From Aminobacter ciceronei (GTDB lineage: Bacteria > Pseudomonadota > Alphaproteobacteria > Rhizobiales > Rhizobiaceae): a stretch of 64,000 bases of DNA. Positions 35,757 to 52,501 of this stretch are shown here, one piece after another. The notes beneath the pieces were generated by a model. The model did no database searches. It had not been told where the DNA came from and saw only the letters and a program-made list of their open reading frames with translations. Within the stretch, counting starts at the first letter, position 1; each line of letters starts with the position of its first letter. The stretch spans positions 124,001 through 188,000 of the forward strand of contig NZ_JACJHY010000005.1 of NCBI RefSeq assembly GCF_014138625.1, in the 5' to 3' direction. The translations under genes and the position numbers were made by a program.

Positions 35757-37634
35757 GTGAGCGGCCAATCGCAGAGTTCTGTCCAGACGGTGGTGAAGCC
35801 GGCGACCGTAACCCACGGGACTGTGGCTACCCTGAAGTCGCCGACCCGCTCACAGCGCCTGCGCTACCGGACCAAGGTGGCGCTGCGCGAGCCGACGACG
35901 ATCATCGGCGTGCTCGCCGCGGCACTGTTTGCCTATCTCATCGTGGTGCCGATCATCTCGATGCTGTCGGATGCGATGCGGGTGCAGTTCGGCGACGAAC
36001 GCCGCATCAAGCAGGATGTCGGCGAACTGACCTGGTACTACATCGACCGCGTCTTTCTCTCGCGCATCTCGCACGACCTGTTCTGGGAGCCGCTGGTCAA
36101 CACGCTGAGCGTGGCGGCCGGCGCTATCACGCTGTCGATGCTTGTCGGCGGCACGCTTGCCTGGCTGCTCAGCCGCACCGACATGTTCGGCCGCCGCTGG
36201 TTCGCCACCGCCCTCATCGTGCCCTACATGCTACCGGCCTGGACCTTCGCACTGGCCTGGACGACCCTGTTCAAGAACCGAACCGTCGGCGGACAGCCCG
36301 GCTGGCTGGAATCGATCGGTTTTTCGCCGCCCGACTGGCTGTCCTACGGCCAGTTGCCGGTGACAATCATCCTGGCGCTGCACTACTCGCCCTTCGTCAT
36401 CCTTTTGTTCGGCAACGCGCTGCGCCGCTTCGACTCGCAACTCGAGGACTCGGCCCGGATTCTAGGCGCCGGCAGGCTGACGGTGGCCCGCAAGATCATC
36501 ATGCCGCTGATGCGCCCATCGCTGATGTCGGCGATGGTGCTGATCTTCGCCAAATGCCTCGGCGAGTTCGGTGTGCCCTACGTGCTCGGCCTGCCGGTCA
36601 ATTTCGACGTCCTGGCGACCTCGCTCTACCAGAACATCTCGTCGCGCCAGGTCGGCGTGGGAGCGGTGCTGGCAGGCGCCATCATGCTGATCGGCATCAT
36701 CACCATCACCATCGATGCCCGGCTGATGCGCGAGGCGCGCCGCTTCGTCACCATCGGCTCGAAAGGCTCGATGAACCGGCTGAGCCCGCTCGGCATCCTC
36801 AGGCTGCCGGCGACCGGCTTTGCCGCGCTGATGTTCCTGCTCAGCGTCGGCCTGCCCATCGGCACGCTGTTCCTGTCGACTGTTATGCGGGTGCCCGGCC
36901 AGTTCAACCTCGACAATTTCACGCTCGACTACTGGATCGGCACCAACCTCAACACGGTGGCGCTGCAGACCGGCATCCTGCTCAGCCCGGATCTTTGGAA
37001 CGCAGCCTGGAACAGCTTGCGCATCGTCGGTGTCGCCTCGATCACCTCAGGTATCCTCGGGCTGCTGGTCGGTTATGTGGTGGCGCGTACTCCGGTGAAG
37101 CCGCTCGGCACCTTCCTGCGCCAGGTGACGTTCCTGCCTTATCTGGTGCCCGGCATCGCCTTTGCAGCTGCCTATCTGTCGCTGTTTGCCGTGCCGCGCG
37201 GGCCGATCCCGGCACTCTACGGCACGACGCTGATCCTGATGCTGGCGCTGATCGCCGACCAGATGCCCTATGCCTCGCGCGCCGGCATCGCCGCCATGAC
37301 ACAGCTCGGAAAGGATCCGGAAGAGGCGGCTCAGATCGCCGGCGCCGGCTGGTTCCGCCGCATGATCTCGATCGTCATCCCGATTCAGAAGGGGTCGCTG
37401 ACGACGGGCATCCTGTTGCCCTTCATCTCGGGCATCAAGGGCCTCAGCCTGTTCGTCGTGCTGGCGGTTCCTTCGACCGACGTGCTGACCACCTATTCGC
37501 TCCGGCTCGTCGACTACCACTACACGCAGGCCGCCAACGCCGTCGTGCTGATCATCGCCGGCCTCGCCTATTTCGGCGCGCTGCTCGGCCAGAAGCTGAC
37601 CAAGACCAATCTCGCGCAAGGACTGGGGAACTGA
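35757..37634 (+). CDS. ABC transporter permease, fused double-domain FbpB/AfuB type
   Basis: The 625-residue membrane protein has two MetI-type permease domains in tandem (about 80-310 and 400-615), each with an EAA loop (EDSARILGAGRLTVARKI and EEAAQIAGAGWFRRMISIV). This is the FbpB/AfuB architecture of the Fe3+/sugar-phosphate/2-aminoethylphosphonate importer group. GTG 35757 is the start that includes the whole N-terminus. It is first gene of an operon with the ATPase one base downstream and two binding proteins. Confidence 0.85.
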   Translation: MSGQSQSSVQTVVKPATVTHGTVATLKSPTRSQRLRYRTKVALREPTTIIGVLAAALFAYLIVVPIISMLSDAMRVQFGDERRIKQDVGELTWYYIDRVFLSRISHDLFWEPLVNTLSVAAGAITLSMLVGGTLAWLLSRTDMFGRRWFATALIVPYMLPAWTFALAWTTLFKNRTVGGQPGWLESIGFSPPDWLSYGQLPVTIILALHYSPFVILLFGNALRRFDSQLEDSARILGAGRLTVARKIIMPLMRPSLMSAMVLIFAKCLGEFGVPYVLGLPVNFDVLATSLYQNISSRQVGVGAVLAGAIMLIGIITITIDARLMREARRFVTIGSKGSMNRLSPLGILRLPATGFAALMFLLSVGLPIGTLFLSTVMRVPGQFNLDNFTLDYWIGTNLNTVALQTGILLSPDLWNAAWNSLRIVGVASITSGILGLLVGYVVARTPVKPLGTFLRQVTFLPYLVPGIAFAAAYLSLFAVPRGPIPALYGTTLILMLALIADQMPYASRAGIAAMTQLGKDPEEAAQIAGAGWFRRMISIVIPIQKGSLTTGILLPFISGIKGLSLFVVLAVPSTDVLTTYSLRLVDYHYTQAANAVVLIIAGLAYFGALLGQKLTKTNLAQGLGN

Positions 37635-37635
37635 C

Positions 37636-38766
37636 ATGCCGAAGATCAACCTGAGCGGCGTCGAGAAGAACTACGGCGGCAACTCGGCCAACGCAGTGGC
37701 CGATCTCGATCTCGAAATCGGCGATGGCGAGTTCATGTGCCTGTTGGGCCCATCCGGCTGCGGCAAGACCACGACATTGCGCATGATCGCCGGGCTGGAG
37801 CATCTGACGGCGGGCGAGATCCGCGTCGGCCAGCGTGTCGTCGATTCGGTCGTCGATGGCGTGTTCGTGCCGCCGGAAAAGCGCGAGATGGGGTTGGTGT
37901 TCCAGAGCTACGCGCTGTGGCCGCATCTGACCATCGAGCGCAACACCGACTTCGGCCTGCGCCTGCGCAAAATGCCCAAGGCCGAGCGCGAGCAGCGCGT
38001 CGACCAGGTGATGAAGACGCTTGGCATCGAGAAGTATCGAGATCGCTATCCCTCGCAACTGTCTGGCGGCCAGCAGCAGCGCGTGGCGCTGGCCCGCATG
38101 CTGGCGGTCAATCCGGAGGTGCTCTTGCTCGACGAGCCGCTGTCCAACCTTGATGCCGCTCTTCGTCTTGAGATGCGGGCCGAGCTCAAGCGGCTGCACC
38201 GCGAGTTCAAGACCACCATCGTGTTTGTCACCCACGACCAGTGGGAGGCAATGACGCTGGCCACCACCATCGCGGTGATGAGCGAGGGTGAGTTGCAGCA
38301 GGTCGGGACGCCCAACGACATCTACGAGCGGCCGGCCAACCGCTTCGTGGCGCAGTTCGTCGGCAATCCGCCGATCAACATCGTCGAGCTGGGTGATGGA
38401 AAATCGGAGGTGTCGCAGCTCGCCAATGCCTATCTCGGCGCACGTTTCGCTGAGTTGCGCGACGCGGGCTCGATCGGCATCCGACCGGAGGCGATCCGGC
38501 TGGCTGATGCCGAGCGCGGCGTGGCCGACGGCGCCGTTGCCGGCCAGGCCGAGGTGACCGGCATCCTGCCCACCGGCGGCAGCTGGATCATCGAGCTCAC
38601 CGCTGGCGGCGAGAAGCTGTTCATGACCACGCACCAGTCGCCGGAGGTCGAGGTCGGCGAGGCCGTGACCTGGTGGGCCAAATCAAAGGCGCTGCATGTC
38701 TTCGACAAGGCAGGCCAGCGCATGGAAGTGGCCGACAGGCTGATGCGGCCGGCGAAGCTGCATTGA
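37636..38766 (+). CDS. ABC transporter ATP-binding protein, FbpC/AfuC-UgpC type
   Basis: The 376-residue ATPase has Walker A GPSGCGKTT, Q-loop LVFQSYALWPHLT, signature [14 protein letters not shown], Walker B VLLLDEPLSNLD and H-loop VTHDQWEA, plus a C-terminal TOBE region (about 245-365). It energises the permease encoded 1 base upstream. Confidence 0.88.
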   Translation: MPKINLSGVEKNYGGNSANAVADLDLEIGDGEFMCLLGPSGCGKTTTLRMIAGLEHLTAGEIRVGQRVVDSVVDGVFVPPEKREMGLVFQSYALWPHLTIERNTDFGLRLRKMPKAEREQRVDQVMKTLGIEKYRDRYPSQLSGGQQQRVALARMLAVNPEVLLLDEPLSNLDAALRLEMRAELKRLHREFKTTIVFVTHDQWEAMTLATTIAVMSEGELQQVGTPNDIYERPANRFVAQFVGNPPINIVELGDGKSEVSQLANAYLGARFAELRDAGSIGIRPEAIRLADAERGVADGAVAGQAEVTGILPTGGSWIIELTAGGEKLFMTTHQSPEVEVGEAVTWWAKSKALHVFDKAGQRMEVADRLMRPAKLH

Positions 38767-38870
38767 GGAGAATTCCCTTCGGGCGGTGGAGGACTGCCCC
38801 GGGGCGAAGCAAGCAGGACCATCGGGAACGACACGGCCGGCATGGCGCCGGCCTGACAAGGGAGGAGAGA

Positions 38871-39998
38871 ATGAGCAGGGATTTCAGTGTGAAACGGCTC
38901 CTGGCGGCGACGGCACTGGCTGCCGCTGTCGGATCGTTTGCCGGCGCGACACAGGCCGAGGAATTCGACCTCAACGCGCTGGTCGAGGCGGCGAAGAAGG
39001 AACCGCCGATCAATGTCTATTCGAGCACCGGCAAGATCGTGAAGCAGGCCGAGGCCTTCACCAAGAAGTACGGCGTGCAGGCGACCGGCACCAAGGCCAA
39101 TGCCGCGGCGCAGCTGGAAATGGTGATCCGCGAGGGCCAGGCCAAGAACGTGCAGGGCGACGTCATCCAGATCAGCGACGTGCCCGCCGGCGTGGCGCAG
39201 CTGGTGCCGCAGGGCTTCGTCGAGAGCTGGCTGCCGCCGGATCTCGCCGCCAAGATCCCGGCGCAGTACCAGAACCCGCTGACCGTCTCCAACGAGGCCA
39301 ACGTCTTTGCCTACAACACCCAGCTCAACGAAAGCTGCCCGGTCAAGAATATCTGGGAGCTGACGGAGGCCAAGTGGAAAGGCAAACTCGCCATGCAGGA
39401 CCCGCTCAACAAGGCGTCCTATGTCGACTGGTTCAACCAGATGGCGACCAACGCCGATGACAAGGTGGCTGCCGCCTACAAGGAGTATTACGGCAAGGAT
39501 CTCGAAGCGGGTGAGGACGGCGCTACCGGCGCCTGGGTCAAGGCGCTCGCCGCCAACGGCCCGTTGCTCACCGATGCCGACGAGGCAGCTGCCCAGGCGG
39601 TCGGCGCTCCCGACCAGAAGGAGCAGTTCATCGGCCTGATCAGCTCGGCCAAGTTCCGTAACAACCAGGACGTCGGCTCCAAGCTTGGCCTGTGCAAGGA
39701 TTTGAAGCCCTTTGCCGGTTGGATGTATCCGAGCCTCGGCTTCATCGCCAAGGGCACCGACAGCCCGAACGCATCCAGGCTGTTCATCCACTATCTGATG
39801 ACCGAGGAGGGCATCGCCCCGCAGGCGGCCGACGGCAAGATGTCGACCAACAGCGACGCCAAGCTGACCGACGACGAACCCTCTGGCATCGGCAAGGTGC
39901 TGGACCAGATCTTCCCCTACGACTCGGCGTCGGCCCAGAGTGACTGGGACGCGCGCCAGGATTGGCAGGACCTCTGGCGCATCAACTACAAGAAATAG
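38871..39998 (+). CDS. ABC transporter substrate-binding protein (first of a tandem pair)
   Basis: The 375-residue extracytoplasmic protein has a signal peptide (about 1-29, cleaved near TQA-EE) and a type II binding fold of the AfuA/FbpA group. It opens FDLNALVEAAKKEPPINVYS. The neighbour at 40066 has the same layout and is plainly a paralogue. No tyrosine cluster typical of Fe3+ binding is evident, so an organic ligand is likelier than iron. GGAGGAG precedes the ATG. Confidence 0.82.
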   Translation: MSRDFSVKRLLAATALAAAVGSFAGATQAEEFDLNALVEAAKKEPPINVYSSTGKIVKQAEAFTKKYGVQATGTKANAAAQLEMVIREGQAKNVQGDVIQISDVPAGVAQLVPQGFVESWLPPDLAAKIPAQYQNPLTVSNEANVFAYNTQLNESCPVKNIWELTEAKWKGKLAMQDPLNKASYVDWFNQMATNADDKVAAAYKEYYGKDLEAGEDGATGAWVKALAANGPLLTDADEAAAQAVGAPDQKEQFIGLISSAKFRNNQDVGSKLGLCKDLKPFAGWMYPSLGFIAKGTDSPNASRLFIHYLMTEEGIAPQAADGKMSTNSDAKLTDDEPSGIGKVLDQIFPYDSASAQSDWDARQDWQDLWRINYKK

Positions 39999-40011
39999 CG
40001 CTTGCGATTGT

Positions 40012-40040
40012 CGCGCCCGGCACTGACGCCGGGCGCGTTT
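40012..40040 (+). terminator. Terminator or attenuator between the two binding-protein genes
   Basis: Perfect 10-base stem (40012-40021 with 40028-40037), 6-base loop, then TTT. Confidence 0.75.
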
Positions 40041-40065: not shown

Positions 40066-41208
40066 ATGAAACCGGCATTTGGAACGAGCAGGAAAGTTGC
40101 ACTGGCAACGACGGCGCTGGCCGGGCTGATGACGGCCATGGTGATGGCGTCGGCTCCGGCGCGCGCGGAAACCTTTGACCTCAACGCGCTGGTCGAGGCG
40201 GCGAAGAAGGAAGCGCCGATCAACATCTATGACAGCACCGGCAAGATCGTCGAAATGGCCGAGAACTTCACCGCCAAATACGGCGTGAAGGCAACCGGCA
40301 TCAAGGTGTCGGCGAGCGCGCAGCTCGAGATGATCGTGCGCGAGGGCCAGGCCAAGAACGTCAAGGGCGACGTGGTGCTGATTACCGACGCGCCGGCCGG
40401 CCTGGCGCAGTTGCTGCCGCAGAAATTTGTCGAGAGCTACCTGCCGCCTGACATGGCCGACAAGATCCCGGTCAAGTTCCAGAACCCGCTGGCGATCACC
40501 ACCAATGCCGCTGTCTGGGCCTACAACACCGAGGCCTACGATGCCTGCCCGGTGAAGAACATCTGGGAGCTCACCGATCCCACGTGGAAAGGCAAGGTCG
40601 CCTTCTACGATCCGCTGTCGAAGGGCACCTATCCCGACTGGTTCAACCAGACTGCGACGCATGACGACGACAAGATGAAGGCTGCCTACAAGGCGCATTT
40701 CGGCAAGGATATCGAGGTCGGCGAAGACAGTGCGACGGCTGCCTGGGTCAAGGGCTTTGCCGGCAATTCGCCGCTGCTTGCGGATGCCGACGACGCGATC
40801 TCCGAAGCTGTCGGCGCGCCCGGCCAGAAGGAACCGTTCTTTGGGCTGATGAGCTCGGCCAAGTTCCGCGACAATGCCGACAAGGGTTTCAAGCTCGGGC
40901 TCTGCGAAGGGCTCGATCCCTGGCCGGGCTGGACCTATGTCAAGCTCGGACTGATCGCCACCGGCACCAAGAGCCCGAACGCGGCCAAGCTGTTCATCCA
41001 CTACATCCTGACCGCGGAGGGCATCGCGCCGCAGGTGAAGGACGGCAAGCTGCCGACCAACCCCGACATCGGCCTGCCTGCCAACGAGCCGTCGGGCATC
41101 GGCAAGGTGCTGGACAAGCTGCAGCAATACGACGCCTCGACCGCACTCGAAGATTGGGACGCGCGCCAGGATTGGCAGGACCTCTGGCGCGTCGCCTACA
41201 AGAAATAG
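40066..41208 (+). CDS. ABC transporter substrate-binding protein (second of a tandem pair)
   Basis: The 380-residue paralogue of the preceding protein shares long blocks (DLNALVEAAKKEAPINIY, then REGQAKNVKGDVVLITDAPA) and the same C-terminal DWDARQDWQDLWR. Signal peptide about 1-35. The pair arose by tandem duplication and may bind related but different ligands for one permease. A strong terminator follows. GGGGAGG precedes the ATG. Confidence 0.82.
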   Translation: MKPAFGTSRKVALATTALAGLMTAMVMASAPARAETFDLNALVEAAKKEAPINIYDSTGKIVEMAENFTAKYGVKATGIKVSASAQLEMIVREGQAKNVKGDVVLITDAPAGLAQLLPQKFVESYLPPDMADKIPVKFQNPLAITTNAAVWAYNTEAYDACPVKNIWELTDPTWKGKVAFYDPLSKGTYPDWFNQTATHDDDKMKAAYKAHFGKDIEVGEDSATAAWVKGFAGNSPLLADADDAISEAVGAPGQKEPFFGLMSSAKFRDNADKGFKLGLCEGLDPWPGWTYVKLGLIATGTKSPNAAKLFIHYILTAEGIAPQVKDGKLPTNPDIGLPANEPSGIGKVLDKLQQYDASTALEDWDARQDWQDLWRVAYKK

Positions 41209-41223
41209 TTTCCCGGTGGGCTA

Positions 41224-41293: not shown

Positions 41294-42103
41294 ATGATGT
41301 CTGACAATTCGGGGCGAAAACTCGCGCCACCCAGGGCATTGCTGCTCGACTTTGGCGGCGTGATCGTATCGACGACGCACCTGCCCGGCTGGCGGGAGCG
41401 GCTGGCCTTGCATGTGCATGGCCTGCTCGTCCAGGCCGGCGCGCAGGCGTCGGCACTTTCGGTCGAGCAGATCACCGCCGACATCAAGGCCGGCGGCATC
41501 GCCGACTCGCACTGGAAGGATGCGATGTCGCGACCACTTGCGCCGCGCGAGCTGCGCCACGAGGAATTCTGGGGCGACTTCGTCGCCGGCGACTGGCCGC
41601 AGCAGGCGCGGGATATCGTCGTGGCCGAGGCCTACGACCTCTGCCGCAAGATGGGCAACTGGAAGAGCGAGCGTGTCTTGCGCACCGGTATGCTCGACCT
41701 GCTCGACGCGGCAGATGGCGCAGGCGTGCCGGTCGGCATCGTCAGCAACGCGCTGTGCGGCCAAGTGCATATCGATTTCCTCGACGCGCATGGCCTCACC
41801 GCGCGCTTCGCCGCCATCGTCCACAGCGACGAGGTCAAGCTGCGCAAGCCCAATCCGGAGATGATCTGGCTGGCGACGCGGGCGCTCGGTGTCGAAGCAG
41901 GCGAGGCCTGGTATGTCGGCGACAATTTCGACCGCGACGTGCTGTGCGGCAAACGCGCCGGCATCGGCGGCAACATCCTGATGGAAGCCAAAGGTACATA
42001 CGACCTGCCTTATGACCTCAAGCTCAAGCCGGATGCCATCGTGGCGGATCCTGTCGGGCTGCTCGGCCTGTTCCGCGAAGCCGGGCGCGGGATCGCGGCA
42101 TGA
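41294..42103 (+). CDS. HAD-superfamily hydrolase
   Basis: The 269-residue protein has HAD motif I LLLDFGGVIV (nucleophile Asp; the usual second Asp is Gly), motif II IVSNALCG, motif III Lys in EVKLRKPNPEMI, and motif IV WYVGDNFDRDV. The set fits a small-molecule phosphatase of the subfamily I cap type. GGAG lies 5 or 8 bases before the two candidate ATGs (41294, 41297). The stop overlaps the next gene in ATGA. It is a candidate for dephosphorylating the imported compound. Confidence 0.82.
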   Translation: MMSDNSGRKLAPPRALLLDFGGVIVSTTHLPGWRERLALHVHGLLVQAGAQASALSVEQITADIKAGGIADSHWKDAMSRPLAPRELRHEEFWGDFVAGDWPQQARDIVVAEAYDLCRKMGNWKSERVLRTGMLDLLDAADGAGVPVGIVSNALCGQVHIDFLDAHGLTARFAAIVHSDEVKLRKPNPEMIWLATRALGVEAGEAWYVGDNFDRDVLCGKRAGIGGNILMEAKGTYDLPYDLKLKPDAIVADPVGLLGLFREAGRGIAA

Positions 42104-42954
42104 CGAGCATCGAAGAGTCGAAGCGCCTGCGGACGGTTGCCGAACAGGCGGCGCAGCTGATGCGCGCCCCGCTGCTGGCGGCATTTCGCTCCAACATGGC
42201 GGTCGACTACAAGGTCGATCTGCATGACGTGGTGACCCAATACGACAAGGAAGCGGAAGTGGCGATCCGCGCCTTCATCCTGGCCGAGGTGCCCGGTTCC
42301 GTGGTGATAGGCGAGGAGGCCGGCGAAAGCGGTGCCGGCCGGGTGCGCTGGTATGTCGATCCGATCGACGGCACCTCCAACTTCGCCCGTGGCTTTGCCT
42401 TCTGGTGTGTGTCGGTCGGCGTGGCGATCGAAGGGCAGGTCGTTGCCGGCGCGGTTTATGACCCCGTCGCCGACAAGCTGTTTTCAGCCGATCTGACTGG
42501 CGCCTGGCTGAATGGCGAGCCACTGCGCTCGTGCGCCATATCTGACGAGCGACATGCGACGCTGATCACGGGCTATCCCGTGGCGCGCGACTTCCGGCGC
42601 GACGGGCAAGAGCAGACGCTGGCCAATTTCGCCGAACTGGTCGAGACGTTTTCGACGTTGCGGCGGCCGGGCAGCGGCGCGCTCAGCCTCTGCCATGTCG
42701 CTGCCGGCTGGGTCGATGCGTCAGCCGGCTTCGGCTCCAATCCCTGGGACGTGGCGGCAGCGGTGCTGATCCTCACACAGGCCGGCGGCAGCTATCACCC
42801 GCTGACCCTTGGCAAGGTCGATGCCGGCGTGCCCGCCTTCATGTGTCCCGGTTATGTCGCACTCGGTGAAGGTGCCGACTATCCGACGTTGATGCGGGTG
42901 GCGCGGCGCATCTCCGACGAACGCGATGCAGCCCGTGCGCGAGACGCCGCATGA
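42100..42954 (+). CDS. Inositol-monophosphatase family phosphatase (first)
   Basis: The 284-residue enzyme has metal motifs VIGEEAGESG and WYVDPIDGTSNFARGF and the C-terminal WDVAAAVLILTQAGG. The family includes inositol monophosphatase, fructose-1,6-bisphosphatase-like, histidinol-phosphate and nucleotide 3'-phosphate phosphatases; which one this is cannot be told. Coupled to the HAD gene by a 4-base overlap. Confidence 0.85.
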   Translation: MTSIEESKRLRTVAEQAAQLMRAPLLAAFRSNMAVDYKVDLHDVVTQYDKEAEVAIRAFILAEVPGSVVIGEEAGESGAGRVRWYVDPIDGTSNFARGFAFWCVSVGVAIEGQVVAGAVYDPVADKLFSADLTGAWLNGEPLRSCAISDERHATLITGYPVARDFRRDGQEQTLANFAELVETFSTLRRPGSGALSLCHVAAGWVDASAGFGSNPWDVAAAVLILTQAGGSYHPLTLGKVDAGVPAFMCPGYVALGEGADYPTLMRVARRISDERDAARARDAA

Positions 42955-43047: not shown

Positions 43048-43063
43048 TTGCACAGCTGTGCAA
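43048..43063. promoter_or_regulatory. LacI-type operator before the second inositol-phosphatase gene
   Basis: TTGCAC-AGCT-GTGCAA is fully palindromic over 16 bases. A TTGACG (43039-43044) just upstream could be a -35. It marks a second regulated promoter inside the phosphatase cluster. Confidence 0.75.
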
Positions 43064-43096: not shown

Positions 43097-43915
43097 ATGA
43101 CGGTTCACGCAACAGCCACCACTGCAGAAACCGGCCTCGACCGGCGTGCAGCATTCTGCCGCGACATTGCGCGTTCGGCGGGCGCGGTGGCGCTCGACGG
43201 GTTCACCAATCGCGTGGCCGGTTTCGACATGAAGGGGCCGCAGGATTTCCTGACCGAGACGGACGCGGCTGTGGAGCGGCACCTCAAGGCGCGTATCGCC
43301 GAAGAATTCCCCGAGGACGGTTTCCTCGGCGAGGAAGGCGGCGGGGCGATCAAGGCGGACATCTGGGTCGTCGACCCGATCGACGGCACGGCGAATTTCG
43401 CCCGCGACATTCCGCATTTCTGCATTTCGATCGCGTTCGTCAGCAATGGCGAGACCGAGATCGGCGCGATCTACAACCCGGTGTTGGACGAGTTGTATTT
43501 CGCCCGCCGCGGACATGGTGGCACCCGCAATGGCAAGCCGTTGTCAGTTGCCAAGACGCGCGATTTCGATGCTGCCTGCGTCGAGTTCGGCTGGTCGAAT
43601 CGCAAGACCAACACGCGTTATCTCGACGTGCTCTCCAATATCCTCAAGCGCGGCGCCAACGTCCGTCGCGGCGCCTCGGGCGCGTTGGGGCTCGCCTATG
43701 TCGCCGATGGCCGCTCGGATGCCTATGCCGAGCTCCACATGCATGCCTGGGATTGCCTGGCGGGGCTGCTGATGGTCAGGGAGGCCGGAGGCGTCGTCGC
43801 GCCGTTCCTTTCGGTCGGCGGCTTGACCGAGGGCGGGGCCGTTCTGGCTGCGGCGCCCGGCGTGGCGCTCGGCATGAGCGAGGCGACAGGCATCGCGCTC
43901 GAGGCCGGCAAGTGA
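43097..43915 (+). CDS. Inositol-monophosphatase family phosphatase (second)
   Basis: The 272-residue enzyme has FLGEEGGG, VVDPIDGTANFARDIPHF and HAWDCLAGLLMVREAGG. It is a clear but distant paralogue of the first. An in-frame ATG at 43058 is unlikely because it leaves almost no room between the operator and the coding region; 43097 has AGGCGG upstream. It heads a unit with the dual-specificity phosphatase and metallophosphoesterase genes. Confidence 0.85.
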   Translation: MTVHATATTAETGLDRRAAFCRDIARSAGAVALDGFTNRVAGFDMKGPQDFLTETDAAVERHLKARIAEEFPEDGFLGEEGGGAIKADIWVVDPIDGTANFARDIPHFCISIAFVSNGETEIGAIYNPVLDELYFARRGHGGTRNGKPLSVAKTRDFDAACVEFGWSNRKTNTRYLDVLSNILKRGANVRRGASGALGLAYVADGRSDAYAELHMHAWDCLAGLLMVREAGGVVAPFLSVGGLTEGGAVLAAAPGVALGMSEATGIALEAGK

Positions 43916-44612: not shown

Positions 44613-46340
44613 ATGAAGATTGCCGTCATCGCCGACCCGCATTTCCACGACATCGACAATCGCCAGAGCGTGGGGCGTGGGGACAGGGTGGCGTTGCGGA
44701 CGCTTGCCGACACCAATGCCTCGACGCGGGTGTTCAACGAAAGCTTCCATGCCACGCACGCACTGCTCGACGACATAGTCAGGCGCGGCATCTCGCTTGT
44801 CATCATCGCCGGCGACCTGACCGATGACGGCCAGCAGTCGACGATGGCCGCGGCGACGGCGCTGCTTGCCGAGTATTCCAGGCGCTTCGGCCTGCGCTTC
44901 GTGGCGACGCCCGGCAATCACGATCTCTATGCGATCCACGGCCGCCACCAGAGCAAGCGCTTCCTCAACCCGGACGGATCGCACATGCTGGTGACGAGCG
45001 ATCCCTTGGCGGAGCAGGGCGGCTCGGTCGAGCGCATCGTCTCGGACGACATGTATTGCGGCGGGTATGGCGCAGCTATCCCGGCACTGGGTGATCTCGG
45101 CTTCTTCAGGCGCGACGGCGACCTTCATTGGGAATGCCCGTTCGGCACCGACGACAGGCTGGAGGCGCGGACCTTCGAGATCGTGTCCGGGGATGGGCAG
45201 ACGATGCGGCGGATGATTGACGCCTCGTTCCTCGTCGAACCGGTCGAGGGGCTGTGGCTCTTGTCCATTGACGCCAATGTCTTCGAGCCGAAGAACGGCG
45301 ACCTCGATCCGACGCTGGAGAAGAGCTACCACGACAGCACGGACGCCGGCTGGAACGCGATGCCGCGCAACAAAGGTTTTGTCCTCGACTGGATGAAGGA
45401 CGTTGCTGCGCGCGCCGAAGCGTTGGGCAAACGGCTGGTCGCCTTCTCGCACTACCCTGTTATCGACCCGCTCAACGGTACCTGGGCGGACGAGGCGAGG
45501 CTGCTCAACGACACCAGTTTCCTGCGCCGCACGCCGCGGGCGGAGGTGTCGAAGGCGGCAGCTGCCACAGGCATCAACGTGCATTTCAGCGGCCACCTGC
45601 ACATCAACGACACCGCCGTCTTCCGCGACGGCGACGACTGGCTGGTCAACATCGCCGTGCCGTCGATGGTCGGCTTTCCACCGGCCTACAAGGTCGTGGA
45701 GATATCCGGCGAAAGACTTGAGGTCGAGACGGTGGTCGTCAGCGACGTGCCGTCATATGACACTGCCTTTGCCCTCTATCGTGTAGAGGCGGAGCAGGAG
45801 GGAACGTCGGCTGCCGTGACCGAAGCGACCGGCCATGCCGATTTCCTCTGCCGGCATCTCGCCGAGATGGTCAGGCATCGTTACCTGCCCAAGGAGTGGC
45901 CGCAGGACCTGGCTGCGCTCGTGCCGCAGCTTTGCCTCGGCGACCTGGAGATGCTGGCGGGGACCGTGGCGCCGCTGACTCCGAAAGATCTACCCTCGGT
46001 CGTTGCTTCGGTGTCCAGAACCGGACCGACGAAGCTGCAGGACTTGCCGTTCTTTGAGATGATCGTCGACTGGTACAGGCTGCGCAAGGGCCGCGAGCTG
46101 GCGCTCGACTTCATCGAGCCCGCGCGCATCGCGGTCTATCGTCATCTCGCCGCGCGTTTCGCCGCCGGCGCCTGGCCGGCGGGAAGCCTTCAGGACAGGC
46201 TGGCATCGTTCATGCGGATGCTGAGCGACTGGCTGGCCAGTGCCCCGTCACGCGACTTTTCCGTCGACCTCGCCACTGGCGAGGTGATGCCAAGGGATCA
46301 TTTGGGCCGTACGGTCCGGCGCCAGACCGGGTCGGCGTGA
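44613..46340 (+). CDS. Calcineurin-like metallophosphoesterase
   Basis: The 575-residue enzyme has all five metal motifs: IADPHFHD (about 5-12), AGDLTDDGQQ, TPGNHDLY, AFSHYPVID and FSGHLHIND. About 190 C-terminal residues beyond the catalytic domain are of unknown function. CpdA-like and phosphodiesterase substrates are usual for the family, so a phosphodiester could be cleaved here. Its last 43 bases overlap the convergent lacI gene. No signal peptide: cytoplasmic. Confidence 0.85.
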   Translation: MKIAVIADPHFHDIDNRQSVGRGDRVALRTLADTNASTRVFNESFHATHALLDDIVRRGISLVIIAGDLTDDGQQSTMAAATALLAEYSRRFGLRFVATPGNHDLYAIHGRHQSKRFLNPDGSHMLVTSDPLAEQGGSVERIVSDDMYCGGYGAAIPALGDLGFFRRDGDLHWECPFGTDDRLEARTFEIVSGDGQTMRRMIDASFLVEPVEGLWLLSIDANVFEPKNGDLDPTLEKSYHDSTDAGWNAMPRNKGFVLDWMKDVAARAEALGKRLVAFSHYPVIDPLNGTWADEARLLNDTSFLRRTPRAEVSKAAAATGINVHFSGHLHINDTAVFRDGDDWLVNIAVPSMVGFPPAYKVVEISGERLEVETVVVSDVPSYDTAFALYRVEAEQEGTSAAVTEATGHADFLCRHLAEMVRHRYLPKEWPQDLAALVPQLCLGDLEMLAGTVAPLTPKDLPSVVASVSRTGPTKLQDLPFFEMIVDWYRLRKGRELALDFIEPARIAVYRHLAARFAAGAWPAGSLQDRLASFMRMLSDWLASAPSRDFSVDLATGEVMPRDHLGRTVRRQTGSA

Positions 46341-47317
46341 AAGCTGACGCTGCCGCCACGCTGGCGCAGCGGATCCTCGCCGTCGAGCAGCATGGTGATG
46401 TGATCGGCCACCTGCACGATCGGTTGGCGGAAGGTGGTCAGCTGGTATGACGCCCAGCCTGCCTGCTCGATGTCGTCGAAACCGACGACGCAGAGTTCCT
46501 CCGGCACATTCATGCCGAACTCGACGCGTGCCGCATCCATGAAACCGCAGGCCAAAAGGTCGGTGACGCAGAAGGCGGCGTCCGGCCGGTGCGAGCCGCT
46601 GAGCAGAAGTCGTCCGGCCTCGAAACCTGCGCCGTAGCCGGTGGGGCCGGCGCGCGTGATGGTAACATCCAGCCCCGCTTCACCAGCGGCCGTCTCGAAG
46701 GCGCGCTCGCGCGCCACCAGGCTCGGCGTTCCGGCCTGCGACGACACCACAGCAATGCGCCGGCTGCCGGCACGGTGCAGCATGTGGAAGGCCTCGCGGG
46801 CGGCCGCCGCATTGTCGACGCTGATGTTTTCCGGCCCGTCGAGATGATCGTCGCGGTTGATCAGGATGACATGTTGGCCGCTGTTGAGGCAGGTGTTGAT
46901 CAACGATGTCGGGGGCGTGCCCGACAGGACGACCGTCGCGTTGGCGCGGTAGTTCAGCGTCTGGCGCAGCGCTGCTTCGACGCTGTCTGTGTCGCCAGAG
47001 GTGTTGATGACCATGGCGACGCGGTTGATCGCCTGCAGGCGCCGGGTGATCGCGTCGATCAGGCGCGAATGGTAGGGCGTGTTGATGTCGGCGCCGATGA
47101 GGCAGACGATGCCGCTGTCCTCATGGATCAGGCTGCGGGCGAGGTGATTGACGTGGTAGCCGAGCGTTTCGGCGGCCTCGAGCACCTTCTTGCGCGTGGT
47201 TTCGGAGACGCTGGCGCCGTCGGTGAAGGTGCGGGACACGGCCGAGCGTGAAACGCCGGCCAATTCGGCGACCTGCTGTGCGCTTACGAATGACCTGCCC
47301 GGCTTGAGTTCGGACAT
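46298..47317 (-). CDS. LacI-family transcriptional repressor
   Basis: The 339-residue regulator has an N-terminal LacI helix-turn-helix (about 8-60: AQQVAELAGVSRSAVSRTFT and the hinge ARSLIHEDS) and a periplasmic-binding-like ligand domain (about 65-335). ATG 47317 follows TGGAG; a longer frame to 47416 would cross its own operator. A perfect TTGCAC-N4-GTGCAA site 44 bases upstream suggests autoregulation, and copies occur before the importer and phosphatase units. The effector is probably the imported compound or its product. Confidence 0.87.
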   Translation of the reverse strand: MSELKPGRSFVSAQQVAELAGVSRSAVSRTFTDGASVSETTRKKVLEAAETLGYHVNHLARSLIHEDSGIVCLIGADINTPYHSRLIDAITRRLQAINRVAMVINTSGDTDSVEAALRQTLNYRANATVVLSGTPPTSLINTCLNSGQHVILINRDDHLDGPENISVDNAAAAREAFHMLHRAGSRRIAVVSSQAGTPSLVARERAFETAAGEAGLDVTITRAGPTGYGAGFEAGRLLLSGSHRPDAAFCVTDLLACGFMDAARVEFGMNVPEELCVVGFDDIEQAGWASYQLTTFRQPIVQVADHITMLLDGEDPLRQRGGSVSFHADPVWRRTVRPK

Positions 47318-47360: not shown

Positions 47361-47376
47361 TTGCACAAATGTGCAA
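47361..47376. promoter_or_regulatory. LacI-type operator of the lacI gene
   Basis: TTGCAC-AAAT-GTGCAA, perfect arms, 44 bases before the lacI ATG. Confidence 0.78.
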
Positions 47377-47470: not shown

Positions 47471-47950
47471 TCAGGCAGCGACGGGCTCGGGCTGGAGGAG
47501 ATCGGCGAGCGTGAGATTGCGGATCAGGGTCGACAGCTCGGGCTCGTCGATGAGCACGGCCGCGTCGGTTGGCGTCAGCCAGGCGCGTTGGCGGGCACCC
47601 GCTTCCTGCCAGGCTTCAAGTTCCTCGGTCACCTCGATAAGATAGGCCGTGACCACGACGTGGACGAAGCTGGTCGACAGCCGCTTCCAGTAGCAATAGC
47701 TGCCAGCGGGCTTTTTCAGGGCTTTGCCGCGCACGCCGGCCTCTTCGCGCGCCTCGATCAGCGCGGCCTGGCGCCCGCTCTTGCCCTTCATCGGCCAGCC
47801 TTTGGGGACGATGAAACGGCGCGTGCCGCGCGACGTCACAAGCATGACCTGAAGCTCGCCGCCCTCGTTCACGCGGAACGGGATAGCAGCGACCTGGGCA
47901 ATGCGCTCGCCCTTGCTCGCCTTGCGGATGGTCTTCTTGTCCTTCGGCAT
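47471..47950 (-). CDS. Nudix hydrolase
   Basis: The 159-residue protein has a Nudix box in PKGWPMKGKSGRQAALIE followed by AREEAGVRG; the REEAG core with its metal-binding glutamates is intact. The PKGWPMKGK form is seen in diphosphoinositol-polyphosphate-type and related Nudix enzymes, which is notable next to two inositol-phosphatase genes, but substrate prediction is weak. The C-terminus ends in LLQPEPVAA. Confidence 0.82.
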   Translation of the reverse strand: MPKDKKTIRKASKGERIAQVAAIPFRVNEGGELQVMLVTSRGTRRFIVPKGWPMKGKSGRQAALIEAREEAGVRGKALKKPAGSYCYWKRLSTSFVHVVVTAYLIEVTEELEAWQEAGARQRAWLTPTDAAVLIDEPELSTLIRNLTLADLLQPEPVAA

Positions 47951-48146: not shown

Positions 48147-49172
48147 ATGAAAACTGCCCTTTTGCGTTCGGCCGCGCTGGCCGGGTTGATGATGGCCGGC
48201 GGCGCGTCGGCGCATGCTGAAAGCCTGACGCTCTATTGCAGCGCCGACGAGGCCTGGTGCCAGCAGATCAAGACCGGCTTCGAGGAAAAGACCGGCATCA
48301 CCGTCGATATGACCCGCAAGAGCTCGGGCGAGACCTATGCCCAGGTGCGCGCCGAAGCGAGCAACCCCAAGGGCGACGTGTGGTGGGGCGGCACCGGCGA
48401 CCCGCATCTGCAGGCAGCCGAGGAAAACCTGACCGAGGAATATGTCTCGCCGATGCGCGGCGAGTTGCACGACTGGGCGATCAAGCAGGCCGAGGCGGCC
48501 GGCAACAAGACGATCGGCGTCTACTCTGGCGCGCTTGGCTTCGGTTACAACAAGGACTTGCTCGCCAAGAACGGCTTGCCTGAGCCGAAGTGCTGGGCCG
48601 ATCTGACCAAGCCCGAATTCAAGGGCCAGATCCAGATCGCCAACCCGAATTCGTCGGGCACCGCCTACACGACGCTGGCGACGATGGTGCAGCTGATGGG
48701 CGAGGATAAGGGCTTCGAGTTTATGAAAGCCCTGCACAAGAACGTCAACCAGTACACCAAGTCGGGCTCGGCGCCGATCAAGGCCGCCGGCCTCGGCGAG
48801 ACCACCGTCGGCATCGTGTTCATGCATGATGCGGTGGCGCAGACGGCCGCTGGCTTCCCGATCGTGACGGTCGCCCCCTGCGAGGGCACCGGCTACGAGA
48901 TCGGCTCGATGTCGATCATCAAGGGCGCGCGCAATGCTGAGGCGGCCAAGAAGTTCTACGACTGGGCGCTGTCCGCCGACATGCAGGGCAAGGCCAAGGA
49001 CGTGAAGTCGTTCCAGCTGCCGTCGAACAAGGCGGCGACCGTCTCCGAGCTGACGCCTGATCTCTCGACGATCAAGCTGATCGACTACGACTTCAAGAAG
49101 TACGGCTCCAGCGAGGAGCGCAAGCGGCTGCTTGGCAAATGGGACATGGAGGTCTCCTCGCTGCCGCAATAA
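48147..49172 (+). CDS. ABC transporter substrate-binding protein, AfuA/FbpA type
   Basis: The 341-residue protein has a signal peptide (about 1-24, cleaved near AHA-ES) and a type II binding fold: LTLYCSADEAWCQQIKTGFE, then GDVWWGGTGDPHLQAAEE and GVYSGALGFGYNKDLL. It is distinct from the tandem pair at 38.9-41.2 kb. The group includes Fe3+, sugar-phosphate (AfuA) and 2-aminoethylphosphonate binders. ATG 48147 is preferred over GTG-like starts upstream (TGGAGGGAAT lies before it). Confidence 0.83.
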   Translation: MKTALLRSAALAGLMMAGGASAHAESLTLYCSADEAWCQQIKTGFEEKTGITVDMTRKSSGETYAQVRAEASNPKGDVWWGGTGDPHLQAAEENLTEEYVSPMRGELHDWAIKQAEAAGNKTIGVYSGALGFGYNKDLLAKNGLPEPKCWADLTKPEFKGQIQIANPNSSGTAYTTLATMVQLMGEDKGFEFMKALHKNVNQYTKSGSAPIKAAGLGETTVGIVFMHDAVAQTAAGFPIVTVAPCEGTGYEIGSMSIIKGARNAEAAKKFYDWALSADMQGKAKDVKSFQLPSNKAATVSELTPDLSTIKLIDYDFKKYGSSEERKRLLGKWDMEVSSLPQ

Positions 49173-49175
49173 TCC

Positions 49176-51431
49176 ATGCGCTCCCGCGACGTAAGCGGCC
49201 GCCTGCATCCGACCGTCGTCCTCTGGACGGTGGTCGGATTGCTCGGCTTTGCCGTGCTGCCCTGGTATGGCGTCGAAGACGGGTTCTTCGGCTTTTCCTG
49301 GCTGTTCGAGGGTTATCCGCTCGACAGCGAGTTCGCACCGGTGCTGATCCTCAACCTCAAGGGTGAGAAGCTGTGGCTGGCGCCGCTCGGTCTGCTCCTG
49401 GCCGCGCCGCTGTTCTTGTGGGGGCGGACGAAATCCGATCCGATCTTCGGCAAGCTGCTGGTTGCGGTCGGTGCCGCGGGTTTTGCCTGGCTGCTGTTCC
49501 AGGGTTTCGCCATCGGCTTGCGGGGCTGGCAGTTCGGCTGGCTCGAAGGACTGTTCGGCGAGCTTGGCGATCGCCAGTTCGGCATGGGTTATGGCGCGCT
49601 GCTGGTCGGCCTCGCCTTCCTGTTCCTGTTTTCCGTCGGTCTTGCCGCGCGCGGCGCCGTCGGCGGCGACGTCTTCGTCGTCTCGACAATCGCTTTCGTG
49701 GTGGCGGCGGTCGGCCTTTTCATCTTCATGCCGATTCTGCAGATGCTGGCCAATGCGCTGGTCACCGAGGACGGCGGCTATTCGGTCACCACCTTCCTCG
49801 GAAAGCTGTTCAGTCCGCGGCTTTGGAGCCTCGACTGCCTGGCCGGCGGCAGCCGCTGCGGCGTCGCCTGGAACTCGCTGTTCCTCGCGGTGCTCGTCGG
49901 GGTGCTGACGACGGTGCTCGGCCTCGTCTTTGCGCTGATGGTGACCCGCACCGGCTTCCGCCATGGCAAGCTGCTGCGCGCACTGACGGTGCTGCCGATC
50001 ATCACGCCGCCCTTCGTCATCGGCCTCGCCATCATCCTGCTCTTCGGCCTATCCGGTGCTGTCACGCAGACCTTTTCGGAGCTGTTTGGCATCCAGCCGA
50101 CGCGCTGGATCTATGGCCTGCCGGGCCTGTTGATCGCGCAGCTGCTCGCCTTCACACCGATCGCCTTCCTGGTGCTTATCGGCGTCGTCGAAGGCGTCAG
50201 CCCGTCAATGGAGGAGGCGGCACAGACGCTGCGCGCCAATCGCTGGCAGACCTTCTGGACGGTGTCGCTGCCGCTGATGCGACCGGGCCTCGCCAATGCC
50301 TTCCTGCTCGGCTTCATCGAGAGCATGGCCGACTTCGGCAACCCGCTTGTGCTGGGCGGCAATTTCGACGTGCTGTCGACGGAAATCTTCTTCGCCATCG
50401 TCGGCGCGCAGAATGACGAGGCGCAGGCAGCGGTGCTCGCCATCGTGCTGCTCGTCTTCACGCTGCTTGCCTTTTACGCCCAGCGTTTCTGGCTCGGCAA
50501 GAAGTCGTATACGACGATGTCCGGAAAGGGCGATGCTGGCGTTCATCCGCAGCTGCCCGCGGGCCTCAAGCGCGCCGTCTACGCCACGGCTGGCTTCTGG
50601 GTCGCCTTCACCATCTTCGTCTACGCCACCATCTTCTACGGCAGCTTCGTCAAGCTGTGGGGCGTCGATCACAGCCTGACCTTCGCCCATTATGTGAAGG
50701 CATTCGCGGTGGGCTGGAACGAGTTCGGCATCCACTGGAAGGGCTCGGCCTGGAGCTCGTTCTGGACGACTTTGCAGATCGCCTTGATCTCGTCGCCGCT
50801 GACGGCGGCCGTCGGCCTGCTCACCGCCTATCTTCTGGTGCGGCAGAATTTTGCCGGCAAGAACGCTTTCGAGTTCGGCACCATGCTGTCCTTTGCCATT
50901 CCGGGCACCGTCATCGGTGTGAGCTATGTCATCGCCTTCAACGTGCCGCCGATCGAGCTGACCGGCACCGGCATCATCCTCGTTCTGTCCTTCATCTTCC
51001 GCAACATGCCGGTCGGCGTGCGGGCAGGGGTGGCGTCGATGTCGCAGATCGACAAGAGCCTGGACGAGTCATCGCTGACGCTGGGCGCCAATTCGTGGCA
51101 GACCTTCCGCAAGGTGGTGCTGCCGCTGCTCCGGCCGGCGATCGTCGCAGCACTCGTCTATTCCTTCGTGCGCGCCATGACGGCGATCAGCGCCATCATC
51201 TTCCTGGTCAGCGCCCGCTACGACATGTCGACGAGCTACATCGTCGGCCGTGTCGAAAACAACGAGTACGGTATCGCGATCGCCTATTCGGCGGTGCTGA
51301 TCGGCGTCATGCTGGCGGTGGTCGGGCTGATGCAGCTGCTTGTCGGTCGCCGCAACATCGGTCGCCGTGGCCATGAACTCTCGCAGTCGCGCACCAATGT
51401 GAGCCAACCGGCATTTTCGGGAGGGAGCTGA
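49176..51431 (+). CDS. ABC transporter permease, fused double-domain with extra N-terminal membrane region
   Basis: The 751-residue protein has about 170 N-terminal residues with four or five extra membrane helices, followed by two MetI-type permease domains (about 225-430 and 530-735), each with an EAA loop (EEAAQTLRANRWQTFWTV and DESSLTLGANSWQTFRKVV). Long AfuB proteins have the fused core; the N-terminal membrane extension is an unusual addition. It starts 3 bases after the binding-protein stop, and its stop overlaps the ATPase start. Confidence 0.85.
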   Translation: MRSRDVSGRLHPTVVLWTVVGLLGFAVLPWYGVEDGFFGFSWLFEGYPLDSEFAPVLILNLKGEKLWLAPLGLLLAAPLFLWGRTKSDPIFGKLLVAVGAAGFAWLLFQGFAIGLRGWQFGWLEGLFGELGDRQFGMGYGALLVGLAFLFLFSVGLAARGAVGGDVFVVSTIAFVVAAVGLFIFMPILQMLANALVTEDGGYSVTTFLGKLFSPRLWSLDCLAGGSRCGVAWNSLFLAVLVGVLTTVLGLVFALMVTRTGFRHGKLLRALTVLPIITPPFVIGLAIILLFGLSGAVTQTFSELFGIQPTRWIYGLPGLLIAQLLAFTPIAFLVLIGVVEGVSPSMEEAAQTLRANRWQTFWTVSLPLMRPGLANAFLLGFIESMADFGNPLVLGGNFDVLSTEIFFAIVGAQNDEAQAAVLAIVLLVFTLLAFYAQRFWLGKKSYTTMSGKGDAGVHPQLPAGLKRAVYATAGFWVAFTIFVYATIFYGSFVKLWGVDHSLTFAHYVKAFAVGWNEFGIHWKGSAWSSFWTTLQIALISSPLTAAVGLLTAYLLVRQNFAGKNAFEFGTMLSFAIPGTVIGVSYVIAFNVPPIELTGTGIILVLSFIFRNMPVGVRAGVASMSQIDKSLDESSLTLGANSWQTFRKVVLPLLRPAIVAALVYSFVRAMTAISAIIFLVSARYDMSTSYIVGRVENNEYGIAIAYSAVLIGVMLAVVGLMQLLVGRRNIGRRGHELSQSRTNVSQPAFSGGS

Positions 51432-52501
51432 TGATCAAGAGCAACGCCGCTTCGGTGGAGTTTCGCGCGGTCACCAAGGTCTACGGCAAGAGCCCGGCGC
51501 CGGCGGTCAACGACGTGTCTTTGTTTGTCGAGGCAGGCAAACTGGTGACGCTGCTCGGCCCGTCCGGCTGCGGCAAGACGACGACTTTGCGCATGATCGC
51601 GGGGCTGGAAATGGCGACGCGCGGACAAATCCTTATCGGCGGGACCGACGTTACGCATCTGCCGGCGACCGACCGCGACGTGTCGATGGTGTTCCAGTCC
51701 TATGCACTGTTTCCGCATATGACGGTCAATGAGAACGTCGAATACGGGCTGAAATTCTCCGGCTTCGCCAAGCGGGAAATCGGCGATCGTGCCCGCGCCG
51801 GGCTCGAACTCGTCGGCCTCGGGGGGTATGGCAACCGTCTGCCGAGCGAGCTGTCCGGCGGCCAGCAGCAGCGCGTCGCCGTGGCGCGGGCGCTTGTGCT
51901 GGAGCCGCAGGTGCTGCTGTTCGACGAGCCACTGTCCAATCTTGATGCCAAGCTCAGGCGCCGGGTACGCGAGGAAATCCGCGACATCCAGACCAAGCTC
52001 GGCCTGACGGTAGTCTACGTCACGCATGACCAGGAGGAGGCCTTGGCCGTCTCCGACCGCATCATCGTCATGAACAATGCCGTCATCGCCCAGGACGGCA
52101 CGCCGCGCGAACTCTACGACGCGCCGGCGGATGCCTTCGTCGCCGACTTCATCGGCGAGGCCAACATCTTCGATTGCGATATCGCCTCGGTAGAAGGTGA
52201 GCTTGCCACTGTGCGGCTAGGCGGTTTCGAAACGCAGCTCGACGCGCGCGGCATGCGGCCGGGGCCGGCGAAGCTGGCGGTGCGGCCAAGCCGGATCCAG
52301 ATCCGGGCGGTGGGCGCGCCGAGCACCATTCCCGGGAGGCTCGGTAAGGTGACCTATGTCGGCTCCGACCTCGAGTTCATGATCGGCACCGAGTTCGGCG
52401 AGGTCTTTGCCGTGTCGCCCGACGTCGATGCGCCGTTCGTGCCGGGGCAGGACGTTGGCGTGGGGTTCGCCGCACGGGGGCCGGTGTTGATCAGGGCCTG
52501 A
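51431..52501 (+). CDS. ABC transporter ATP-binding protein, AfuC/FbpC type
   Basis: The 356-residue ATPase has Walker A GPSGCGKTT, MVFQSYALFPHMT, signature [14 protein letters not shown], Walker B VLLFDEPLSNLD, H-loop VTHDQEEA and a TOBE domain from about 240. Its ATG begins on the last base of the permease stop (TGATG). It completes the second importer. Confidence 0.9.
   Translation: MIKSNAASVEFRAVTKVYGKSPAPAVNDVSLFVEAGKLVTLLGPSGCGKTTTLRMIAGLEMATRGQILIGGTDVTHLPATDRDVSMVFQSYALFPHMTVNENVEYGLKFSGFAKREIGDRARAGLELVGLGGYGNRLPSELSGGQQQRVAVARALVLEPQVLLFDEPLSNLDAKLRRRVREEIRDIQTKLGLTVVYVTHDQEEALAVSDRIIVMNNAVIAQDGTPRELYDAPADAFVADFIGEANIFDCDIASVEGELATVRLGGFETQLDARGMRPGPAKLAVRPSRIQIRAVGAPSTIPGRLGKVTYVGSDLEFMIGTEFGEVFAVSPDVDAPFVPGQDVGVGFAARGPVLIRA

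What the first reader, a model, noticed from the sequence alone, without database searches (positions are those of the whole stretch)
35757..52501. Candidate undescribed uptake-and-dephosphorylation system: two AfuABC-like importers around five phosphatases
Two complete importers of the AfuABC/FbpABC class, three binding proteins, and HAD, two inositol-phosphatase family, DSP-type and calcineurin-like phosphatases plus a Nudix enzyme share one LacI regulator. AfuABC of Actinobacillus imports sugar phosphates and the related PhnSTUV imports 2-aminoethylphosphonate. All phosphatases here lack signal peptides, so dephosphorylation would occur after import. A phosphorylated polyol, inositol phosphate or glycerophosphodiester is a reasonable guess.
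Basis: inference. Interest (0 to 1): 0.78.

Follow-up and report, generated by a model that had tools for sequence, protein, structure and literature searches.

The report
Inositol-phosphate import and dephosphorylation gene cluster
A soil bacterium carries a gene cluster, found in varying forms in other proteobacteria, that most likely pulls phosphorylated inositol into the cell, strips off the phosphates and passes the inositol on as food, a route for which no bacterial transporter turned up in the papers searched.

Summary
In detail: two ABC importers, three binding proteins, a HAD, two IMPase-family proteins, a DSP-type and a calcineurin-like phosphatase, a Nudix protein and a LacI regulator lie at 35757-52501 of an Aminobacter-like genome. 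(1) Importer 1, IMPase, DSP and LacI form one conserved system: all six core genes in 75 of 80 DSP loci. (2) The genome has exactly three perfect copies of TTGCACN4GTGCAA, upstream of permease 1, of IMPase 2-DSP-phosphoesterase and of lacI; 52 of 85 loci carry it. (3) myo-Inositol catabolism genes lie within about 10 kb in 8 of 80 loci, six genera, three orders; 10 of 10 genomes with a DSP match have iolB, 89 of 249 overall. (4) Importer 2 keeps AfuA's ligand residues; its relatives adjoin IMPase in 10 of 20 and iol genes in 6 of 20 loci, controls 0 of 20. One locus (L176) joins both importers, LacI, operators and iol genes. In the window, importer 2 has no such operator. Substrate and mechanism are inferred; nothing biochemical was tested.

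The parts
35350..35365 (.). secondary LacI-type operator, 11 of 12 (TTGCACGGCAGTGCAT)
   Evidence: same place in the seven Aminobacter-type loci
35451..35466 (.). perfect operator TTGCACGCCTGTGCAA, about 290 bp upstream of permease 1
35757..37634 (+). importer 1 permease (two fused BPD_transp_1 domains)
37636..38766 (+). importer 1 ATPase (UgpC/PhnT2-like, below both cut-offs)
38871..39998 (+). importer 1 binding protein SBP1; in the tree it groups with the single SBPs of Marinomonas and Vibrio
40066..41208 (+). importer 1 binding protein SBP2 (paralogue of SBP1, 63-66% identical)
41294..42103 (+). HAD-family hydrolase; 11 of 80 loci
42100..42954 (+). IMPase-family phosphatase 1
43048..43063 (.). 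perfect operator TTGCACAGCTGTGCAA upstream of IMPase 2
43097..43915 (+). IMPase-family phosphatase 2; nearest solved relatives are named inositol-1-monophosphatase
43951..44583 (+). DSP-type Cys phosphatase (CRGGRSRS); part of the conserved core
44613..46340 (+). calcineurin-like metallophosphoesterase; 38 of 80 loci
46298..47317 (-). LacI-family regulator
47361..47376 (.). perfect operator TTGCACAAATGTGCAA, about 44 bp upstream of lacI (suggests autoregulation)
47471..47950 (-). Nudix protein; only in the 7 Aminobacter-type loci of 80, so probably a passenger
48147..49172 (+). importer 2 binding protein SBP3, AfuA type (S, T, H, D, E retained)
49176..51431 (+). importer 2 permease (fused, AfuB type)
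51431..52501 (+). importer 2 ATPase (AfuC type)

Best explanation
A LacI-controlled inositol-phosphate scavenging system. SBP1 and SBP2 catch inositol phosphates (probably different isomers or phosphorylation states) in the periplasm, and permease 1 with ATPase 1 imports them intact. In the cytoplasm the DSP removes phosphates from the more highly phosphorylated forms, the phosphoesterase opens diesters such as glycerophosphoinositol where it is present, and the IMPases finish to myo-inositol, which enters the iol pathway. A Na/Pi-cotransporter-family protein in many relatives would deal with the surplus phosphate. LacI represses the importer-1 operon, the IMPase 2-DSP-phosphoesterase genes and itself until an inositol compound accumulates. 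Importer 2 is an AfuABC-type importer of a cyclic polyol or sugar phosphate, in this lineage probably an inositol monophosphate. Shown here: gene content, conservation, operators, linkage to iol genes. Inferred: ligands, order of enzyme steps, effector, direction of phosphate flow.
For: Core of six genes in 75 of 80 loci. Operators: 3 exact in 6.77 Mb, all in this cluster, about 0.27 expected from base composition; in 85 loci 93 sites at 11 or more of 12, 82 of them near the start of a core gene, against 0-6 for five scrambled palindromes. iolB, C, D or E within about 10 kb in 8 of 80 DSP loci of six genera, in different arrangements; iolB of L083 373 bits against cut-off 205, iolG of L062 433 against 355. 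Genomes with a DSP match that have iolB: 10 of 10, background 89 of 249 (hypergeometric 2e-5, kinship ignored). IMPase 2 is nearest to solved inositol-1-monophosphatases. L176 holds iolD, E, B, the importer-1 system with Na/Pi and LacI, and a divergent AfuA-type sbp3-permease with one perfect and two 11-of-12 operators between. AfuA-type relatives: IMPase in 10 of 20, iol in 6 of 20, controls 0 of 20.
Against: 72 of 80 DSP loci show no iol gene in the ~10 kb held, and in the own genome iolB is on another contig. 33 of 85 loci, many of them Rhizobiaceae, have no operator at 11 or more of 12. Five of the ten DSP matches in the order sample are weak and belong to a third variant (L171-L175) with a metallo-beta-lactamase-fold protein instead of IMPase, so the substrate may vary. 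Permease 1 relatives in G084 and G197 (about 60% identity) stand without DSP or IMPase. In the ten genomes that also gave the controls, IMPase adjoins the AfuA-type locus in 4 of 10 and iol in 2 of 10 (Fisher 0.008 and 0.10). IMPase-family proteins act on several phosphates; NCBIfam scores lie under every equivalog cut-off. No beta-propeller phytase in the own genome or in the five genomes with strong permease 1 and DSP (3 of 249 overall). No ligand was docked or measured.
Confidence: 0.7

Rival explanations
1. Two neighbouring but separate systems: importer 1 with its phosphatases takes up inositol phosphates, while importer 2 is an ordinary AfuABC for hexose-6-phosphates that happens to lie next door.
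For: SBP3 keeps the sugar-phosphate residues of AfuA; its closest solved relative is 8x1a, titled periplasmic G6P-binding protein VcA0625; no operator upstream of SBP3 in the window; importer 2 is next to the system in only 9 of 80 DSP loci, 7 of them Aminobacter-type; 0 of 20 AfuA-type loci have a DSP.
Against: AfuA-type relatives adjoin IMPase in 10 of 20 and iol genes in 6 of 20 loci against 0 of 20 controls; the operator precedes sbp3 in L089, L135 and L176; the adjacency recurs outside Aminobacter in L062, L089 and L176.
Confidence: 0.37
2. The real substrate of importer 1 is an inositol phosphodiester (glycerophosphoinositol or inositol 1,2-cyclic phosphate from phosphatidylinositol breakdown), the phosphoesterase acting first.
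For: Phosphoesterase in 38 of 80 loci, with a motif order like GpdQ's (motifs; the likeness is recalled); ATPase 1 scores best with UgpC (371 bits, cut-off 432); the third variant has a metallo-beta-lactamase-fold protein beside its DSP.
Against: Of the enzymes sought, the minimal systems of Marinomonas and Vibrio have only IMPase and DSP. Glycerophosphodiesterases of the GDPD family were not searched for.
Confidence: 0.2
3. A non-inositol sugar or nucleotide phosphate is imported and the iol linkage is incidental.
For: IMPase-family enzymes are broad (recalled); 72 of 80 loci lack iol neighbours.
Against: iol linkage in six genera and three orders with different arrangements, and for importer-2 relatives too.
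Confidence: 0.15
4. Ferric-iron or metal-citrate importers, as fold neighbours and family names suggest, with unrelated phosphatases.
For: Fold neighbours of SBP1 are MctA and FbpA-type proteins.
Against: SBP1 has SSAKFR where AfuA has its ligand-binding His-Asp (that FbpA has a tyrosine pair there is recalled); conserved phosphatases and iol linkage would be unexplained.
Confidence: 0.03

Closest known systems
AfuABC of Actinobacillus pleuropneumoniae (PMC4546632) and VcA0625 of Vibrio cholerae (PDB 8x1a)
   Same: Importer 2: binding protein E 2.5e-93 to 4r72 and 1.1e-94 to 8x1a, all five named ligand residues kept, fused permease plus ATPase.
   Different: Relatives in alphaproteobacteria lie beside IMPase and iol genes, and a few beside a LacI with this operator; the held text of the AfuABC paper has no occurrence of 'inositol'.
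UgpABCE and PhnSTUV-type importers of phosphorylated compounds
   Same: ABC import of an intact phosphorylated compound; ATPase 1 resembles UgpC and PhnT2.
   Different: Scores lie below the NCBIfam cut-offs; SBP1 and SBP2 match no NCBIfam model at 1e-5; several phosphatases in the cluster. A direct comparison with UgpB was not made.
Pyridoxal-5-phosphate importer P5PA (PMC8427247, listing only; PDB 6wce)
   Same: Same binding-protein branch as SBP3 (E 1.8e-73).
   Different: P5PA has Ala where AfuA and SBP3 have Asp206 (alignment).
myo-Inositol catabolism (iol) clusters with inositol importers
   Same: Same end product and, in eight of 80 DSP loci, physical linkage.
   Different: Known inositol uptake moves free inositol (recalled); here phosphatases and a phosphate-compound importer would precede it.

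Membership tests
AfuABC (importer 2) | AfuA residues H205, D206, E229 for the ring and S37, T150 for the phosphate | tested here: met
   all five present in SBP3
AfuABC (importer 2) | binding protein, permease and ATPase genes side by side | tested here: met
AfuABC (importer 2) | binds G6P, F6P or S7P | not testable with these tools
   needs ligand binding
AfuABC (importer 1) | AfuA H/D/E motif in the binding protein | tested here: not met
   the positions align with A232, K233 and a gap in SBP1
PhnSTUV / PhnS2T2U2 (2-aminoethylphosphonate) | NCBIfam equivalog cut-offs | tested here: not met
   PhnU2 136 and 272 of 593; PhnT2 334 and 361 of 458; phnS2 222 of 393
FbpABC ferric importers | ferric ligand residues in the binding protein | tested here: inconclusive
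   SBP1 has SSAKFR at the position aligned with AfuA's His-Asp; FbpA's tyrosine pair is recalled and was not aligned directly
Inositol monophosphatase family | Pfam Inositol_P and metal-site motifs | tested here: met
   (motifs recalled)
Inositol-1-monophosphatase (equivalog) | NF008027 cut-off of 332 bits | tested here: not met
   113 and 160 bits
Dual-specificity phosphatases | CX5R loop and DSP fold | tested here: met
   Pfam DSPc just under its cut-off
LacI regulators | HTH, periplasmic-binding-like domain and palindromic operator | tested here: met
   binding itself not tested

The most novel reading that the evidence does not exclude
Many soil, rhizosphere and marine bacteria import inositol phosphates intact with two classes of binding protein (a new family, plus AfuA-type proteins often annotated as iron transporters) and use a bacterial dual-specificity phosphatase as a cytoplasmic inositol-polyphosphate phosphatase, so that part of the inositol-phosphate pool is eaten as carbon inside cells rather than dephosphorylated outside.
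Probability: 0.45. Interest if true: 0.78.

Novelty: new variant of a known kind. Interest (0 to 1): 0.63.

Why it matters
[quoted passage not shown] The listings of eight literature searches showed no bacterial importer for them (some searches were capped). If right, a transporter family gets a substrate, AfuABC annotated as iron transport in alphaproteobacteria needs a second look (two such papers seen in passages), and a bacterial DSP gets a metabolic role. It can be tested in Sinorhizobium meliloti, which carries the system on pSymB.

Tried and rejected
Own-phytase link: beta-propeller phytase (PF02333) was sought in 249 order genomes; 3 hits, none in the own genome or in the five genomes with strong permease 1 and DSP. 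Uptake of a self-made phytase end product is not supported for these; other phytase families were not searched.

Iron reading: set aside on residues and context, with the limits stated.

Nudix as a part: set aside; 7 of 80 loci, all Aminobacter-type.

S. meliloti locus tags, recalled and not checked against the record (the pSymB record carries one annotated feature here), gave one paper with one occurrence; not followed.

Pocket geometry of SBP1: not computed; no model coordinates were found in the Python box, so only conservation was used. The VIA aligner was not available.

First neighbourhood run on AfuA-type loci took in the wrong loci through a file filter and was repeated.

Rows and limits: only the best 80 of 181 DSP relatives were kept by the tool. 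SBP rows: 177 found, 120 after length and identity thinning, 82 rows used for the structure. DSP rows: 89 found, 67 after thinning, 55 rows used. The duplicate S. meliloti record L009 and the first own-genome loci were left out of tree and alignments. iolA-like hits of 28-30% identity (L054, L055, L093) were not counted as iol genes. In one search, IMPase hits under 33% (in L134 and L148) were not counted. L081 lacks a DSP in the ORF count although tblastn had found its locus with a DSP query. The DSP match of G080 has one stop inside. AfuA-type loci: 20 of the 21 other genomes with a match were taken (G259 left out); the 20 control stretches were placed by me and come from 10 of the 20 genomes, two each.

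Changed on checking: confidence in the best explanation from 0.72 to 0.70 and in the first rival from 0.35 to 0.37, because the matched-genome control is weaker than the pooled one.
Full report
What is there. The window lies in a 6.77-Mb genome whose DSP is 91-95% identical to that of five of the six Aminobacter genomes found and 83% to the sixth. Importer 1 is a fused permease, an ATPase and two paralogous binding proteins; then come a HAD hydrolase, two IMPase-family proteins, a DSP-type phosphatase and a calcineurin-like phosphoesterase. A LacI gene and a Nudix gene point the other way; then follows importer 2 (binding protein, fused permease, ATPase). Motifs of the IMPases, the DSP and the phosphoesterase are present; the HAD shows its first motif and KPNP but not the third pattern tried.

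One conserved system. The DSP, aligned with relatives from plasmid records, found 181 relatives in the genome collection; the best 80 were kept. In these 80 loci BLAST finds permease in 79, ATPase in 79, binding protein in 80, IMPase in 77, DSP in 79 and LacI in 78, all six in 75 (some loci are cut by contig ends). Optional parts are the phosphoesterase (38), a Na/Pi-cotransporter with PhoU domain (45; Pfam run on one member) and the HAD (11). The smallest version, in Marinomonas and Vibrio, is permease, ATPase, one binding protein, IMPase, DSP and LacI, as far as the query panel shows. The binding proteins fall into several paralogue clades (FastTree, some deep forks weak), which fits several related ligands served by one importer. 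Eight loci (L050, L055, L061, L062, L072, L074, L089, L090) carry a more distant importer (permease about 40%, binding protein about 30% identical) with the DSP and, in most, the same regulator and phosphatases.

Regulation. Three promoter regions of the window carry TTGCACN4GTGCAA: upstream of permease 1, of IMPase 2-DSP-phosphoesterase and of lacI. The genome has exactly these three exact copies, against about 0.27 expected from base composition. With one mismatch allowed there are four more places, one in the permease promoter and three on other contigs, and the backward-read control pattern gives four, so only the exact copies are informative genome-wide. In 85 loci there are 93 sites at 11 or more of 12, in 52 of the 85, Vibrio and Marinomonas included; five scrambled palindromes gave 0 to 6. 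Of the 93, 82 lie near the start of a permease, binding-protein, IMPase, DSP, lacI or Na/Pi gene. The other 33 loci, many of them Rhizobiaceae, have none at that threshold.

The substrate. Clustering of neighbouring ORFs turned up iolG and iolB. With reference iol proteins, 8 of 80 loci have iolB, C, D or E in the 10 kb held: Devosia, three Marinomonas, Alloyangia, Cucumibacter, Neorhizobium and Parasedimentitalea, in different orders and orientations; the Alloyangia locus (L062) has the more distant importer type. In 249 genomes of the order, all 10 with a DSP match also have iolB over its cut-off, against 89 of 249 with any iolB match. Five of the ten are strong DSP matches of this system (5 of 5 with iolB); the other five are weak and turned out to be a third variant. 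The hypergeometric values, 2e-5 and 0.005, ignore kinship. IMPase 2 is nearest to solved inositol-1-monophosphatases. Against this, 72 of 80 loci show no iol neighbour, and in the own genome iolB lies on another contig.

Importer 2. SBP3 matches AfuA and the V. cholerae G6P-binding protein strongly and keeps the five residues that the AfuA paper names (passages read). Relatives at E 1e-80 or better were found in 22 of 289 class genomes, the own one included. In the 20 loci taken (L129-L148), an IMPase-family gene lies nearby in 10 and iolB, C, D or E in 6; in 20 stretches of 17 kb that I placed elsewhere in ten of these genomes, 0 and 0 (Fisher 0.0002 and 0.01). Restricted to those ten genomes the counts are 4 of 10 and 2 of 10 against 0 of 20 (Fisher 0.008 and 0.10). 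None of the 20 has a DSP. Operators of the same type precede sbp3 in L135 and L089, each beside a LacI. In L176 one 20-kb stretch holds iolD, iolE, iolB, phosphoesterase, Na/Pi, DSP, LacI, two IMPases, three binding proteins, ATPase 1 and permease 1, and, divergent from it with one perfect and two 11-of-12 operators between, an AfuA-type sbp3 (57%) and permease 2 (47%), where the stretch ends. So both importers may well serve the same kind of substrate; a hexose phosphate for importer 2 cannot be excluded.

Importer 1 is not AfuABC. A confident model of SBP1 (mean pLDDT 96) matches type II binding proteins at about 20% identity or less, metal-citrate-binding MctA first; a profile search agrees. 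A profile alignment with SBP3 puts Ala232, Lys233 and a gap at AfuA's His, Asp and Glu. Conserved basic residues include K27, K47, R59, K153, K233 and R235; whether they line the cleft was not measured.

The DSP model (mean pLDDT 86) has the VHR/DUSP fold, with D89, C131 and R137 invariant in 55 rows. That it acts on inositol polyphosphates is inference.

Counter-evidence and variants. Permease 1 relatives at about 60% in G084 and G197 lack the phosphatases sought. The third variant (L171-L175) pairs DSP, LacI and, in 4 of 5 loci, the operator with a metallo-beta-lactamase-fold protein (Pfam run on two) and a distant importer, without IMPase. No beta-propeller phytase accompanies the system in the genomes checked. 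The system may therefore serve a family of phosphorylated polyols rather than one compound.

Literature. All ten searches of the open library were used. Eight bear on an inositol-phosphate importer; their listings, capped (12 of 15; 15 of 209; 12 of 27; 12 of 169), show no bacterial one. Searches concerned AfuA and S. meliloti locus tags. Of six papers holding both AfuABC and inositol, I looked at passages of two; both treat AfuABC as iron transport. In a survey of inositol utilisation, 'phosphatase' and 'ABC transporter' do not occur in the main text (passages). Most subscription papers are not in the library, so priority is not proven.

Verdict.

Noticed in passing
L171-L175: Variant system: ATPase, distant binding protein and permease, a further ORF beside the DSP (metallo-beta-lactamase fold by Pfam in the two checked, L171 and L173), DSP (34-40%) and LacI (47-50%), with the operator in 4 of 5 and no IMPase.
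   Followed up: partly
L169 and L170 (G084, G197): Importer 1 relatives (about 60% permease identity) without the phosphatases; in L169 a response-regulator-like ORF lies close by (by eye).
   Followed up: partly
L050, L055, L061, L062, L072, L074, L089, L090: More distant importer type (permease about 40%, binding protein about 30% identical) with a DSP and in most the LacI, phosphoesterase and Na/Pi genes.
   Followed up: partly
L012 and L009 (S. meliloti pSymB): Two IMPase-DSP pairs flank the system, with an RpiR-type HTH protein of 122 aa at the end; in L012 PdxA, an alcohol dehydrogenase and a four-carbon acid sugar kinase lie upstream.
   Followed up: no
L037 (Vibrio sp. HDW18 plasmid): The minimal system lies on a 599-kb Vibrio plasmid, which hints at horizontal spread.
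   Followed up: no
window 33172-35200: GDP-L-fucose synthase and GDP-mannose 4,6-dehydratase genes on the minus strand just upstream of importer 1.
   Followed up: no
window 53606-55201: ORF like CopA-type multicopper oxidases, below the family cut-off, downstream of importer 2.
   Followed up: no
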